Of a stretch of 64,000 bases of DNA, positions 1-6,760 are shown one piece after another (position 1 is the first letter of the stretch; every line of letters starts with the position of its first letter). A model generated the notes under the pieces. The model was given only the letters and a program-made list of their open reading frames with translations, had not been told where the DNA came from and ran no database searches. Origin of the DNA: Anaerocaecibacter muris (GTDB taxonomy: Bacteria > Bacillota > Clostridia > Christensenellales > Pumilibacteraceae). The stretch is taken from assembly GCF_943192945.1 (NCBI RefSeq), contig NZ_CALPCE010000006.1:62001-126000 (forward strand), given 5' to 3'. A program made the position numbers and the translations under genes.

Positions 1-2
1 GC

Positions 3-956
3 CCTTGCTTGTTCAAAAACGGCGCGGTGGTCGGGTACTTAAACCCCGACAATTTCGCACAGTTCGAGAACGGTACGGACGCAGATATTGAAAGCGGCGA
101 CGCGGGCGACGTTATGATCGAGATACCGAAGTTTTATTACAAAATCGAGCGCGTCGGAAATTACGTCGAGGTAAAAATCGCAAACGCGCTTATGGCGGGT
201 TTCACCGATTATGCGTTCAGCTACAAAGGCGAGAGCAAGGACAAGTTCTATATCGGCGCATACTTGGGATATAAGGACAGCAACAACAAACTGCGTTCGT
301 TGACCGGCAAAACCGTAACGGGCAATATCACGATCGGCGCGGCGCGAACGGCAGCGCAAGCGAACGGCGCGGGGTATGAGCAACTTTCTTTCAACAAGCT
401 GACCGCGCTACAAGTTTTGTATGTCGTTATGTTCAAAAACTTAAACAGCCAAGCGGCGCTCGGGCAAGGATATACAAGCGCAAGCAATTTCCGCGATACG
501 GGCGCGACCGATGAAAAAGGAATGACATACGGCACGAACACCGCCGCAAGCGCAGATGATACGGTCAAGTTCTTGGGCATCGAGGACTTTTACGGAAACC
601 TTTATCAATGGGTAGACGGTTACGTTTCGGGCAACAATATCGTGCTTGTAGCCGACGGAAATTTCAACGACACCGGCGACGGGTACGAAAGCCACGCACG
701 GCACGGCTCGGTTAGCTATTCGTATATCAAAGACGTGGAGGGCGACAACATATTGGCGTTTACGCCGAAAACGGGCGGTGCAAGCACAACCACTTATTAC
801 GCCGACTACGGCTATATAACCAATTCCGCTTATGTCCCGGTTTTCGGGGGCGGTTATGGCGGTGGCGCGGGTGCGGGCGCGTTCCGGCTGGATTGCAATT
901 GTTCGGCGTCGTATGCGCTTCCGAGTTTCGGCGCGCGCTTGACTTTTTGTGGCTGA
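3..956 (+). CDS. DGR-diversified phage tail/receptor-binding protein (5' partial)
   Basis: This frame is open to the left edge, so the protein is N-terminally incomplete; TTG at 9 is the first possible internal start. The visible 315 or so residues have a middle part (FYGNLYQWVDGY) that recalls the formylglycine-generating-enzyme / C-type lectin fold of DGR target proteins. The last 37 codons are the variable repeat, very rich in Gly and Ala and bounded by conserved Phe and Cys codons. A near copy, the template repeat, lies just downstream and is followed by a DGR-type reverse transcriptase. From family knowledge, such proteins sit at phage tail tips and bind host surface ligands, and the variable residues line the binding face. 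The tail genes that follow support a phage role. The ligand cannot be told from the sequence. Confidence 0.85.
   Translation, partial: PCLFKNGAVVGYLNPDNFAQFENGTDADIESGDAGDVMIEIPKFYYKIERVGNYVEVKIANALMAGFTDYAFSYKGESKDKFYIGAYLGYKDSNNKLRSLTGKTVTGNITIGAARTAAQANGAGYEQLSFNKLTALQVLYVVMFKNLNSQAALGQGYTSASNFRDTGATDEKGMTYGTNTAASADDTVKFLGIEDFYGNLYQWVDGYVSGNNIVLVADGNFNDTGDGYESHARHGSVSYSYIKDVEGDNILAFTPKTGGASTTTYYADYGYITNSAYVPVFGGGYGGGAGAGAFRLDCNCSASYALPSFGARLTFCG
831..941 (+). repeat. DGR variable repeat (VR)
   Basis: The 3' end of the tail-protein gene aligns without gaps to 1014-1124 over 37 codons. By hand count about 26 of about 40 differences fall on adenines of the template copy, most of them in AAY codons (for example AAT read as GTT, GGT, TGT, CTT or TAT here). 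The remaining 14 or so are at non-adenine positions, so this VR is not a fresh product of the present template. The VR ends 15 bases before the stop codon, the usual location. Confidence 0.88.
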
Positions 957-1013
957 TAGCCCGAAAGCGTAAATGTACAACAAACAAATTTTTTAAGGCG
1001 ATGATTAACCGTC

Positions 1014-1124
1014 TATGTTCCGAATTTCGGGGGCAATCGCTCGAATGACACGAATGCAGGAGCGTTCTATTTCAATTGCAACAATTCGACGTCGAATGCG
1101 AATGCGAATATCGGCACACACCTA
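1014..1124 (+). repeat. DGR template repeat (TR)
   Basis: Non-coding copy of the variable repeat, placed between the target gene and the reverse transcriptase. It contains about ten AAT or AAC codons when read in register with the VR, the usual TR signature, since A-to-N change at AAY codons gives wide diversity without stop codons. It would be transcribed as part of the TR-RNA that the reverse transcriptase copies with errors at adenine. Homology to the VR fades abruptly after 1124, just before the RT leader. Confidence 0.85.
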
Positions 1125-1235
1125 CTTTTGATACAAATATTTGGTAAAAATCGCCTTGCCGCTTGGCAAAATAAAATAATCTCAACATTCGAGTTAGTAG
1201 AGAAATCGAAAGCCCGAAGAGGACACAAAAGCTTT

Positions 1236-2300
1236 ATGAAAAGATACGGCAACCTATTTGAGAAAATAGTGGGCATAAACAACATTGTCCGCGCGCATAC
1301 AAACGCGCGAAAGGGCAAGACACATTATAAAGCGGTCAAAATGGTAGACAGCGACGTTTTAGGTTATTGCGTTAAGATACGACAAATGCTAATCGACAAA
1401 ACGTACACGACGTCAAAATACCACATATTCGAGATAGAGGACAGTGGCAAGCGGCGGTCGATCGCCGAGCTTCCTTATTACCCCGACCGCATAATACAAT
1501 GGGCGGTGATGCAAGTAATCGAAGAAATAATTTGCAAGCACCTAATACCGACAACGTATGCGGCGCTACCGCAAAAAGGTACACACGCCGCGCTCAAGAA
1601 GATGCACCAATATATGACCGACGACCCGCGCGGAACGCGCTATTGCTTAAAGCTCGACGTTAAAAAGTTCTTTCCGAATATCGACAAAACAATACTGAAA
1701 TCGCTATTGCGACGAAAGTTCAAAGACAAAGATTTGCTGTGGCTATTGGACGATATAGTTGACAGCTACGACAAAGGAAACCCGAAAGGCATACCGATAG
1801 GAAGCTACACGAGCCAATATTTCGGCAATTTTTATTTGTCGTATTTCGACCATTGGACGAAAGAGCAAAAGCGCATCAAGTATTATTTGCGGTATATGGA
1901 CGACATCGTTATTTTGAGCGACAGCAAAGAGTATCTACATAATTTGCGGCGCGAAATTTTCGAGTATTTGGCGGTCAACCTAAATCTTACCGTCAAAGAG
2001 AATTGGCAAGTGTTTCCGTCAACCGTGCGCGGCATAGATTTTGTCGGTTATCGCTGTTTCGGCAAATACACGCTTTTGCACACAAGCACGAAAAAGAATT
2101 TGTGCATAAAGACGAAAAAGTTACAGCGAAAGAAAAATCAAGGCAAGCCGCTTACAAAGTCCGAGCAAAGCACGGTCGGATCGTATAGCGGTATCTTGAA
2201 ATGGTGCGACAGCGCACGACTTAAAGACAAAACAATCAATAAATTTTTGGGAGGTCAAAATGGCAATAGTAAGAGGCTCGCAAGAGCAGAGGCCGCTTGA
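1236..2300 (+). CDS. Diversity-generating retroelement reverse transcriptase
   Basis: Predicted 354 residues from ATG 1236, which gives the typical DGR start MKRYGNLFEKI; the frame stays open upstream to a TTG at 1128, inside the repeat tail. A GAGGA lies about 13 bases upstream. The catalytic YMDD is at residues 220-223. Around residues 186-194 is IPIGSYTSQ, the DGR-specific version of RT motif 4, where retroviral and group II enzymes carry a QG-type motif. The enzyme is expected to copy TR RNA into adenine-mutagenised cDNA that replaces the VR. No accessory Avd gene lies between target and RT, and none of the small proteins downstream resembles one. The 3' end overlaps the next gene by 41 bases. 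Confidence 0.93.
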   Translation: MKRYGNLFEKIVGINNIVRAHTNARKGKTHYKAVKMVDSDVLGYCVKIRQMLIDKTYTTSKYHIFEIEDSGKRRSIAELPYYPDRIIQWAVMQVIEEIICKHLIPTTYAALPQKGTHAALKKMHQYMTDDPRGTRYCLKLDVKKFFPNIDKTILKSLLRRKFKDKDLLWLLDDIVDSYDKGNPKGIPIGSYTSQYFGNFYLSYFDHWTKEQKRIKYYLRYMDDIVILSDSKEYLHNLRREIFEYLAVNLNLTVKENWQVFPSTVRGIDFVGYRCFGKYTLLHTSTKKNLCIKTKKLQRKKNQGKPLTKSEQSTVGSYSGILKWCDSARLKDKTINKFLGGQNGNSKRLARAEAA

Positions 2301-2511
2301 TTTGGAATTCGGCAAAACCACCGTCTACGAGCGCAAAAACATTCGGCGCATAGACGAGCCGGACACCGACGAGCGGCGCGGCTTTCACGGTTGGGAGTAC
2401 GACGAAACGCAGTACACCATAGCCGAATGGCACAAGCAAGACAGTATCAACAATAAGCTCGCAATAGCCGAGCTTGCCGCGCTGATAGCGGGAGGGGGCA
2501 ACAATGGTTAA
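2260..2511 (+). CDS. Small phage tail-region protein of unknown function
   Basis: 83 residues, charged and soluble, starting at ATG 2260 behind a clear GGGAGG. It overlaps the end of the RT gene by 41 bases and overlaps the next small gene by 8 bases, so the three are probably translated together. I do not recognise a named domain. Its place directly before an XkdX-like gene is the place where Firmicute tail modules keep small accessory proteins, so a tail or baseplate accessory role is inferred from position only. Confidence 0.6.
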   Translation: MAIVRGSQEQRPLDLEFGKTTVYERKNIRRIDEPDTDERRGFHGWEYDETQYTIAEWHKQDSINNKLAIAELAALIAGGGNNG

Positions 2512-5318: not shown

Positions 5319-5504
5319 ATGAGAACCGAAGCACAAAAAGCCGCCGACCGCAAATACCGCGAAACGCACAAGCACGACAGCGTGAAGTGGGGTACGCGAC
5401 TAAAACCGGAAGAAGCCGCCGCCTACGACGCGATACTGCAACAGCATAATATGAGCCGCGCGGACTTCATACGGCGAGCGTTTGAAGAATTGCAAGGGCG
5501 GTGA
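5319..5504 (+). CDS. Ribbon-helix-helix (Arc/CopG-like) DNA-binding protein
   Basis: 61 residues, behind CGGAGGAAAG. A basic N-terminal segment is followed by a short strand with alternating residues (SVKWGTRLK) and two helices, the second containing MSRADFIRRAFEE. This is the ribbon-helix-helix layout in which the strand inserts into the DNA major groove as a dimer. It is the first gene after a promoter with a perfect palindromic operator, and the transposase gene starts 4 bases after its stop. It probably represses itself and the recombinase; that regulatory link is inference. Confidence 0.75.
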   Translation: MRTEAQKAADRKYRETHKHDSVKWGTRLKPEEAAAYDAILQQHNMSRADFIRRAFEELQGR

Positions 5505-5508
5505 AGAT

Positions 5509-6522
5509 ATGAAGGGGGTCAAGTTCACAGCAAGAGAGAAGAAGCGCATACTTGATATGTGGCTCGTAGAGCATAAGCATTGGCTATACGTTTGCCGCAA
5601 AGAAAAGTGTACGCGCGTTAGCCTTTGGCGGTGGAAAAAGCTATATGACGGTACGCTCGAAAGTTTGGAGAACAAATCGAGCCGACCGAAAACGCCACAC
5701 CCGAACAGCCAAACGGAAGAAGAAAAGCGCGAGATACAGCAAGTAATGGACGATAACCCGACAATGGGTTATACCGAGCTGTACGGAGAGTTGCGGGCAA
5801 AGTACGCATATTCGCGGCACTATATGACTATGTACAAATACATACGCAAGCAATGCTTACGCCCGGCAGAAGTATACGAACAGTATCAGCCGCAGCCCTA
5901 CGACACGCCGGAGATGCTCGGGCAAAAATGGCAGCTCGACGTGAAGTTCGTGCCGCTTGAATGCGGACGGGGAATATTCCGGACGGAGCGGTGCTTCCAA
6001 TACACAATGATAGACGAGGCGACGCGCGAGCGGTTTATATACGCATACAAAGAGCATAGCGGCTTCTCAACCGTTGACTTTATAAAGCGGGCGGTCGTAT
6101 ATTTCGGCTACGCGCCGATTGAAATTCAAACCGACAACGGAACAGAGTTCACGAACCCGAAAGGAACGGGCGAGGGAAAGGTTCACGTTGCCGACCAAAT
6201 TATGAACCGGCTCGGCATAAAGCATCAGCTTATAAGACCGTACACGCCGCGACACAACGGCAAGGTGGAACGATCGCACCGAACCGACCAAGAGCGATTT
6301 TATAATTACTTGACGTTCTCGACCTTTGAAGAGCTGCAAGACAAAATGCGCGAATGGCTAAACCGCTATAATCGCAAGCCGCATACGGCGCTCCGCGACC
6401 GCAACGGCAAAATGGCGATGCAAAGCCCGCTCGATAAACGCGCCGAGCTTTTGCAAATGCTCAAAGAGGGTGCGATTAGCGGCAAAGTGCGATTTGTAAA
6501 GAATTCCGATCGCGCGGCTTAA
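5509..6522 (+). CDS. DDE integrase/transposase (rve core)
   Basis: 337 residues from ATG 5509, which follows a GGGCGGTGAAG site. The N-terminal 60 residues form a helix-turn-helix with YVCRKEKCTRVSLWRWKK. The catalytic core shows the three acidic residues in order: Asp in WQLDVKF, Asp in IQTDNGTEF, and Glu in HNGKVERSH. This is the IS481/IS3-like integrase core architecture. No flanking insertion-sequence ends were found by eye, and it shares a promoter with a phage-style repressor. It may therefore be the prophage's own transposition enzyme rather than a passenger IS, though either is possible. Confidence 0.85.
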   Translation: MKGVKFTAREKKRILDMWLVEHKHWLYVCRKEKCTRVSLWRWKKLYDGTLESLENKSSRPKTPHPNSQTEEEKREIQQVMDDNPTMGYTELYGELRAKYAYSRHYMTMYKYIRKQCLRPAEVYEQYQPQPYDTPEMLGQKWQLDVKFVPLECGRGIFRTERCFQYTMIDEATRERFIYAYKEHSGFSTVDFIKRAVVYFGYAPIEIQTDNGTEFTNPKGTGEGKVHVADQIMNRLGIKHQLIRPYTPRHNGKVERSHRTDQERFYNYLTFSTFEELQDKMREWLNRYNRKPHTALRDRNGKMAMQSPLDKRAELLQMLKEGAISGKVRFVKNSDRAA

Positions 6523-6667: not shown

Positions 6668-6760
6668 TTCTAAAATATTTCTAAAAATTTTCTAAAAAAA
6701 TATGAAAAAGTATGCTAAAAACGCTTGACTAATTTGCAGGTACGGTGCAAAAAACGCTTG
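6668..6760 (+). repeat. Helically phased short repeats in the ftsH upstream region
   Basis: TTCTAAAA occurs at 6668, 6679 and 6690, exactly 11 bases apart. AAAAACGCTTG occurs at 6717-6727 and again at 6750-6760, 33 bases apart, the second overlapping the ftsH -35. Such phasing suggests a protein-binding or bent-DNA element. Confidence 0.5.

What the first reader, a model, noticed from the sequence alone, without database searches (positions are those of the whole stretch)
3..2300. Complete diversity-generating retroelement in a prophage tail module
Seen: a variable repeat at the end of a tail-type gene, an adenine-rich template repeat 70 bases on, and a reverse transcriptase with YMDD and IPIGSYTSQ. 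About 26 of the 32 template adenines in the aligned 111 bases differ in the VR, against about 14 of 79 other bases (hand counts). Known: such cassettes hypermutate receptor-binding proteins. Here it would let the phage follow changes in its host's surface.
Basis: partly seen in the sequence, partly recalled or inferred. Interest (0 to 1): 0.88.

Follow-up and report, generated by a model that had tools for sequence, protein, structure and literature searches.

The report
Out-of-step diversity-generating retroelement in damaged prophage
A bacterial virus lying dormant in this genome carries a known kind of gene-rewriting cassette for its tail protein, but the rewritten stretch no longer matches its own template and the virus itself looks damaged, so the cassette is real but has probably not worked here for some time.

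Summary
VR 831-941 and TR 1014-1124 differ at 26 of 32 template adenines and 14 of 79 other bases (Fisher p = 5e-10). The RT (1236-2300) is intact, has YMDD, and its best solved relative is 8ub7 (E 2e-35). The target is a collagen-like tail protein related to the DGR variable protein TaqVP (profile E 2e-14). Between TR and RT lies an Rfam RT-17 RNA, 1.1 bits under its cut-off, with strong covariation in relatives. No Avd gene was detected. So it is a genuine DGR.

The picture of a working device is only partly supported. Of 69 loci with a detectable pair, 67 have 0-2 non-adenine mismatches; this one has 13 of 77, while two other DGRs of the same genome have none. The mismatches fall in codon blocks (P = 3e-4) and the VR fits the template of a sister phage better than its own (8/78 against 14/79). 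The prophage (C6:38488-68738) lacks the portal gene and part of a neighbouring gene that its sister has. Best reading: a dormant or relict DGR whose VR records an older template.

The parts
1..956 (+). target gene, 3' part (gene starts 286 bp left of the window, C6:61715): collagen-like N-terminus, probable CLec/FGE-type C-terminal domain
   Evidence: 413-aa ORF in L006; phrog_5302 tail protein E 9.6e-74; collagen repeat E 5e-5, under Pfam cut-off; profile match to 5vf4 = TaqVP, E 1.7e-14
831..941 (+). variable repeat (VR), in frame, 12 bases before the stop codon
930..941 (+). possible IMH (VR GCGCGCTTG where TR has ACACACCTA); the A-to-G differences are shared with G014 and nearly so with G020
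   Evidence: name IMH by analogy (PMC3240598 passages)
1014..1124 (+). template repeat (TR), 32 adenines, same frame as VR, no stop in that frame
1152..1228 (+). spacer RNA between TR and RT, Rfam RT-17 (39.3 bits, cut-off 40.4); RT-18 32.7 bits on 1157-1231
   Evidence: covariation in an alignment of 15
1236..2300 (+). reverse transcriptase (354 aa from ATG 1236), intact, YMDD and IPIGSYTSQ
   Evidence: (phrog_1423 E 9e-115)
2260..2511 (+). 83-aa phage ORF overlapping the RT's end, conserved in G014 (82%) and partly in G020 (54%); no family match
5482..6522 (+). IS481-like DDE transposase/integrase at the prophage's right end (NCBIfam 177 bits, under its cut-off of 224), 90% identical in G014
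6739..6753 (+). right copy of the 15-bp direct repeat that bounds the prophage (left copy C6:38473-38487, outside the window)

Best explanation
A genuine diversity-generating retroelement of an apparently Avd-less class with an RT-17-type spacer RNA, which targets a tail protein of a temperate phage. Shown: the parts, the adenine bias, the conserved RNA structure in relatives, the mismatch between VR and present TR, the missing block. Inferred: the TR transcript with its folded spacer is copied by the RT, with errors opposite adenines, and the cDNA replaces the VR. In this prophage the last such rewriting used an older (or another) template; since then the TR and the VR have each changed in small codon-sized blocks and no rewriting has brought them back into step. 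The element therefore is dormant or relict here, in a prophage that has lost its portal gene.
For: Adenine bias p = 5e-10. RT nearest solved RT is 8ub7, E 2.3e-35, far ahead of the next, 1.3e-13. Target matches 5vf4, the accession that PMC6328139 gives for TaqVP. RT-17, RT-18 or RT-4 RNA lies between TR and RT in 17 of 18 relatives searched. Covariation: 94.2% of cells paired against 74.2% in shuffles, 9 of 11 pairs changed on both sides; 0 of 500 shuffles reach four of the five measures, 3 of 500 the fifth. Desynchrony: 13 of 77 non-adenine mismatches against 0-2 in 67 of 69 loci and 0 of 78 in each of the two other DGRs of this genome with the same trimming; at 16 sites where the two templates differ the VR fits the sister's TR alone at 8, its own TR alone at 2, both at 5, neither at 1. 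The sister phage in G014, in step (VR1 1/78, VR2 0/78 non-adenine mismatches), shows its two ends joined, and its right end also adjoins non-phage sequence with a tRNA-Arg gene. Missing block: G014 24.65-29.84 kb with portal protein phrog_533; no portal match in the own genome.
Against: The RT is intact and under purifying selection against G014 (dN/dS 0.13, dS about 1), and TR and target are in frame, so decay cannot be old. The window's spacer folds no better than shuffled sequence on its own (z 0.03) and scores 1.1 bits under the Rfam cut-off. Dormancy is inferred from one assembled sequence; no reads were examined. The gap and the 433-bp inversion in the prophage could be assembly errors, and the absence of the portal had no positive control. 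The survey's pair finder favours clean pairs.
Confidence: 0.7

Rival explanations
1. Active DGR. TR and VR differ only because a new TR was acquired recently and the next homing event has not yet happened or been fixed.
For: RT, TR frame and tail gene are intact and the spacer RNA is recognisable; RT dN/dS 0.13; the 6-base block 25-30 is changed in the TR alone, relative to G014.
Against: Both TR and VR carry private blocks relative to G014 (VR 55-60, TR 25-30), so more than one change happened without homing; 67 of 69 loci are in step; the prophage lacks the portal gene.
Confidence: 0.17
2. Assembly chimera: the contig joins the VR side of one phage variant to the TR side of another, and the inversion and gap are assembly errors too.
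For: The genome is assembled in 12 contigs and its origin is not told; related phages share flanks around VR and TR, where an assembler could switch.
Against: Contig runs through VR, TR and RT without breaks; VR-TR spacing agrees with G014 (183 and 184 bases); the other two DGRs of the same assembly are in step; VR fits neither of the two templates fully (8/78 at best).
Confidence: 0.12
3. The VR was written in trans by the template of a co-resident relative of the G014 type; such trans writing is described for Thiohalocapsa (PMC10907252, passages), and one TR serving a distant second target is seen here in G014.
For: VR fits the G014 TR better than its own (8/78 against 14/79); the G014 TR also matches a second VR 13.5 kb away with 0/78 non-adenine mismatches.
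Against: 8 mismatches remain against the G014 TR; no other template with that block in the own genome at up to 3 mismatches (genome 95.7% complete).
Confidence: 0.1
4. Not a DGR: an RT of another class beside a chance or ordinary duplication.
For: NCBIfam's nearest model is group II intron RT/maturase, 113.6 bits, far under its cut-off of 300; only 65% of mismatches face adenines.
Against: Adenine bias p = 5e-10; orthologous locus in G014 and related locus in G020 with 1 and 0 non-adenine mismatches; RT nearest to 8ub7.
Confidence: 0.01

Closest known systems
Bordetella phage BPP-1 DGR (avd-TR-brt, target mtd)
   Same: RT family (that 8ub7 is the BPP-1 RT complex is recall; one search says only 'Reverse transcriptase'), adenine bias, TR then spacer RNA then RT, target at a tail protein's C-terminus (PMC12875486, passages)
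   Different: no Avd detected here; spacer is RT-17 type; no clear hairpin after the VR (4-bp stem, not above chance); TR and VR out of step
DGRs of crAss-like and Psychrobacillus phages
   Same: RT 36-57% identical over 92-97% of the query in the listed rows of these phages (that the 'crNN_1' phages are crAss-like is recall); of Zeta crAss-like phages only two carry Avd (PMC12386605, passages, section 11)
   Different: host group; in the pair read there as working only adenines change
Lera phage TR2-VR2 and TR3-VR3 (Zeta crAss-like)
   Same: same anomaly: 3 other substitutions beside 12 adenine changes and 10 beside 18, read there as pairs that possibly worked some time ago (PMC12386605, section 11)
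   Different: there another pair of the same phage is clean; here it is the only pair found in the prophage, and a sister's template explains part of the mismatches
Thermus aquaticus TaqVP (5vf4)
   Same: target protein profile match E 1.7e-14; CLec fold of FGE subtype per PMC6328139 (passages)
   Different: here a collagen-like N-terminal part; fold itself not modelled with confidence (pLDDT 52)

Membership tests
Diversity-generating retroelement | reverse transcriptase of the DGR type (YxDD, GxxxSQ) | tested here: met
   YMDD and IPIGSYTSQ; GxxxSQ as usual motif in PMC12386605 section 11; 8ub7 best at E 2.3e-35. No tree was built.
Diversity-generating retroelement | TR/VR pair with mismatches biased to TR adenines | tested here: met
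   26/32 against 14/79, p = 4.7e-10; but 65% on A, under the 75% usual in Roux 2021 (passages)
Diversity-generating retroelement | VR agrees with its own TR at non-adenine bases (sign of recent homing) | tested here: not met
   14/79 mismatches; 0-2 in 67 of 69 loci. This speaks against present activity, not against descent.
[quoted passage not shown]
   position met; sequence profile hits TaqVP E 1.7e-14 but mainly its part before the VR; model poor, Foldseek top hit 5vf4 only E 0.013
Diversity-generating retroelement | structured spacer RNA between TR and RT | tested here: met
   RT-17, covariation; window's score 1.1 bits below cut-off, single-sequence z 0.03
Diversity-generating retroelement | accessory protein (Avd or analogue) | tested here: not met
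   bAvd PF22296 found in 1 of 14 genomes or records, namely at the other DGR on C3 of the own genome; 11 of the 14 are viral records that may be fragments; the model may miss distant Avds; HRDC and MSL were not sought. DGRs without Avd are in print
Diversity-generating retroelement | hairpin after the VR | tested here: inconclusive
   4-bp stem GGCT/AGCC, p about 0.67; of 22 loci only L030 and L031 are at p 0.02 or less. In BPP-1 the stem-loop is not strictly required (PMC12875486, passage)
Diversity-generating retroelement | population diversity at the VR with constant TR | not testable with these tools
   no reads; no strain closer than G014 (RT 80%) was found, and some tools leave out records very near the window
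Retron, group II intron, DRT or other RT systems | best profile match above that family's cut-off | tested here: not met
   all 6 NCBIfam models that match are far under cut-off; PADLOC was not searched

The most novel reading that the evidence does not exclude
Templates of DGRs are not fixed: they turn over in codon-sized blocks, and can even be hypermutated by their own machinery, so that a VR can be a fossil of a template that the element no longer has. The window shows the first (its VR fits a sister's template better than its own); the viral contig L026 shows the second: its TR differs from that of L025 at 17 of 117 bases, every one an adenine in L025, while in the neighbouring RT gene, about 12% different, only 27 of 115 changes fall on adenines.
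Probability: 0.35. Interest if true: 0.6.

Novelty: new member of a known kind. Interest (0 to 1): 0.37.

Why it matters
DGRs are a known device, and one more in a prophage is ordinary. What could matter is the record it holds: a VR out of step with its TR, next to an in-step sister, lets one see that templates change and ask how. [quoted passage not shown] The place of Rfam RT-17/RT-18/RT-4 RNAs in the TR-RT spacer suggests a role for them as the RNA that recruits and primes the RT in Avd-less DGRs; the Weinberg 2017 paper that named them (recall) could not be read here, so this may be known.

Tried and rejected
Rejected: a second, matching template elsewhere in the own genome (pattern search, up to 3 mismatches, only the VR itself). 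Rejected: TR of the window hypermutated at adenines (it differs from the G014 TR at 4/33 adenines and 12/78 others). Rejected: simple old decay of a dead prophage (RT intact, dN/dS 0.13, mismatches clustered). Rejected: post-VR hairpin as evidence (not above chance in the window). Rejected as an argument: minimum-free-energy fold of the spacer alone (z 0.03).

Led nowhere: viral-contig scan with the target protein (0 loci); two DNA-pattern scans for close strains (0 hits); AlphaFold model of the target domain (pLDDT 52) and its Foldseek search; paper searches on RT-18/RT-2 RNA names (0 papers; 'RT-17' as one term occurs in none of the 30 listed of 289), on mutations in the TR (0), on mutated TR (2 papers, neither reports it in the passages seen), on DGR with covariance models (2 papers, listing only). 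Weinberg et al. 2017 is not held.

Corrected on the way: my notes call the G014 contig circle-like with identical 9.2-kb ends or give counts that later calls refined; one search shows that the ends agree over the first 8,583 bases and then part. A first count on untrimmed coordinates of the C3 and C10 pairs gave 8/75 and 7/85 non-adenine mismatches; with the trimming used for all loci they are 0/78 and 0/78.

Rows dropped: I gave 73 loci: 31 of the 32 (L037 left out, RT cut by the contig end), 39 of the 64 (23 are contigs already; L067 and L071 start inside or at the RT), plus G014, G020 and the window. Four of 73 gave no pair (L035, L040, L074, L115, all with the RT within 350 bases of the locus start). 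Some loci are near-identical (L014-L016, L064-L066, L093/L095), so 69 is not the number of independent cases. Where a locus has several VRs the best pair was taken. For the RNA alignment I chose 15 sequences (window and 14 of the 17 relatives with an RNA match; L026, L030 and L039 left out, as well as L023, where Rfam found nothing).

Full report
What is there. The window is C6:62001-126000 of a 1.97-Mb genome in 12 contigs. At its left edge lies the 3' part of a 413-residue gene (start C6:61715), with the VR near its end; then come a 72-base gap, a template repeat, a spacer and a reverse transcriptase. Fisher's p is 4.7e-10, and 3e-8 without the last 12 bases. No other place in the window, either strand, matches the TR's non-adenine bases at more than 40 of 79; the VR matches 65. 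The VR is in frame and ends 12 bases before the stop codon; many TR adenines sit in AAT/AAC codons.

The reverse transcriptase. From ATG 1236 it has 354 residues with IPIGSYTSQ and YMDD. It matches PF00078 (E 8e-18) and PHROG 1423 (E 9e-115). Against solved structures the best match is 8ub7 (nine entries, E 2.3e-35); that these are the BPP-1 RT complexes is my recall, since the table says only 'Reverse transcriptase'; the next is a group II RT at 1.3e-13. The six NCBIfam models that match score far under their cut-offs, group II RT/maturase highest with 113.6 bits against 300. In the phage collection 146 records match, 100 over at least 80% of the query, all under 60% identity.

The target. 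It begins with a collagen-like repeat (PF01391, E 5e-5, under cut-off) and matches a PHROG tail protein over residues 44-412 (phrog_5302, E 1e-73). A profile of 12 target domains hits 5vf4 at E 1.7e-14; PMC6328139 gives 5VF4 as TaqVP, a CLec-fold DGR variable protein of the FGE subtype (passages). The single-sequence hit (E 0.003) lies mainly before the VR. The AlphaFold model is poor (pLDDT 52); its top Foldseek hits are 5vf4 chains but only at E 0.013. The fold is thus likely, not shown.

The spacer RNA. Rfam RT-17 matches 1152-1228 at 39.3 bits (cut-off 40.4, E 6e-5 in 8 kb). Of 18 relatives searched, 17 have RT-17 (15), RT-18 (1) or RT-4 (1) between TR and RT, 11 of them above the cut-off of their family; L023 has none at E 0.1. 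On 15 aligned spacers a two-helix structure that I derived from the RT-17/RT-18 models and the alignment itself holds 94.2% standard pairs (shuffled 74.2%, slid partners at most 45.5%), with changes on both sides at 9 of 11 pairs; 0 of 500 shuffles reach four of the five measures, 3 of 500 the fifth. Because the structure was fitted to these sequences, the slid control leans in its favour. The window's spacer alone is no more stable than shuffles (z 0.03). In BPP-1 the spacer between TR and brt folds, recruits bRT-Avd and primes the cDNA (PMC12875486, passages), so the same role is inferred here. A bAvd profile finds no Avd in 13 of 14 genomes or records; the one match is at the other DGR on C3 of the own genome, which shows that the model can find an Avd here, though only at 28 bits. 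Of the Zeta crAss-like phages only two are reported to carry Avd (PMC12386605, passages, section 11), so lack of Avd is not new.

The prophage. Alignment with a sister phage in G014 (same genus, RT 80% identical) and a 15-bp direct repeat place the element at C6:38488-68738, window position 6738 at the right. The joined flanks match an uninterrupted site in 6 of 19 other genomes of the genus, and in two nearby pieces in 2 more, though only about 19-33 bases left of the repeat are conserved; in the other 11 only the right flank matches. The right end carries an IS481-like transposase, 90% identical between the two phages. In G014 the same right end adjoins non-phage sequence with a tRNA-Arg gene, and elsewhere on the same contig the element's two ends are joined, as expected for circular or concatenated phage DNA, if not an assembly effect. 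Compared with G014 the window's prophage lacks about 5.2 kb (G014 24.65-29.84 kb), carries an inverted 433-bp piece there, and of the sister's 472-residue gene before the gap only the first 269 residues match in place. The missing block holds the portal protein (phrog_533, E 4e-26); no portal match was found elsewhere in the own genome, without a positive control in that call. The cut gene is likely the terminase, by position only; PHROGs gives it no name.

Out of step. In a working DGR the VR equals its TR outside adenines. The G014 template obeys this with two targets: 1 of 78 and 0 of 78 mismatches, the second VR lying 13.5 kb away in a second tail-like gene. G020 has 0 of 114. The two other DGRs of the window's own genome, on C3 and C10, have 0 of 78 each. 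Of 73 loci given, 69 have a pair; non-adenine mismatches are 0 in 43, 1 in 19, 2 in 5, 11 in L026 and 13 of 77 in the window (108-base trimmed pair). The finder prefers clean pairs, and several loci are near-identical, so these are not independent odds. In the window the 14 mismatches hit 8 codons (12.4 expected, P 3e-4). At the 16 sites where the window's TR and the G014 TR differ, the VR is compatible only with the G014 TR at 8, only with its own at 2, with both at 5, with neither at 1. Relative to G014, at repeat positions 25-30 the TR alone is changed and at 55-60 the VR alone. So both halves have changed since they last met. The same kind of anomaly is in print for Lera phage (PMC12386605, section 11).

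Why dormant. The mismatch shows that no homing from the present TR has reached this VR. The missing portal gene suggests that the prophage cannot make particles by itself. Against long death: RT intact, dN/dS 0.13 with dS near saturation, TR still in frame. The likely order is: TR and VR drifted or were exchanged in blocks while the phage lived, and the prophage was damaged later; this order is inference. A chimeric assembly remains possible.

A side finding that bears on mechanism. L025 and L026 are 90% identical over 3 kb. Their TRs differ at 17 of 117 bases, all adenines in L025 (31 adenines against 14), p = 2e-12; in the RT only 27 of 115 differences fall on adenines. At 13 of the 17 sites four further relatives also have adenine; at four sites one or more of them differ. 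The flanks are those of a TR, and the L026 VR agrees with the L025 TR outside adenines. The simplest reading is that the L026 template was itself rewritten by mutagenised cDNA. PMC10907252 states that the TR remains unaltered (passage). My searches for such a report found none, but they are narrow.

Verdict. Genuine DGR, known kind, with a better defined RNA part, in a damaged prophage and probably not working at present.

Noticed in passing
L026:2948-3064 against L025:2465-2581: Template repeat of a viral contig with 17 changes, all at adenines of the related template: a TR that seems to have been hypermutated itself.
   Followed up: partly
G000 C3 (L007:13209-16708, - strand) and C10 (L008:11075-13727): Two more DGRs in the same genome, both with adenine-only TR/VR pairs (12/25 and 11/23 adenines, 0/78 others each); C3 has a bAvd-like gene (under cut-off) and an RT-2 match (under cut-off) and its VR lies inside the gene (DUF6273 protein), C10 has RT-18 RNA and a 7-bp hairpin after the VR (read by eye).
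   Followed up: partly
G014 contig C5 (L051, L056): Sister phage with one template and two targets, the second in a gene 13.5 kb away, both in step with the TR.
   Followed up: yes
window 5482-6522 and 6739-6753; C6:38473-38487: The recombinase at the phage's end is an IS481-like DDE transposase; insertion sites differ between G000 (before an ftsH-like gene) and G014 (beside a tRNA-Arg gene), with a 15-bp direct repeat at the G000 site.
   Followed up: partly
C6:51588-52149 (L004:9588-10149): 433-bp inversion and a 5.2-kb gap relative to G014, removing the portal gene.
   Followed up: partly
L010-L043 (18 loci searched) and L001, L003: Rfam RT-17, RT-18 and RT-4 RNAs lie in the TR-RT spacer of DGRs; RT-2 and RT-18 match at the C3 and C10 DGRs.
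   Followed up: yes
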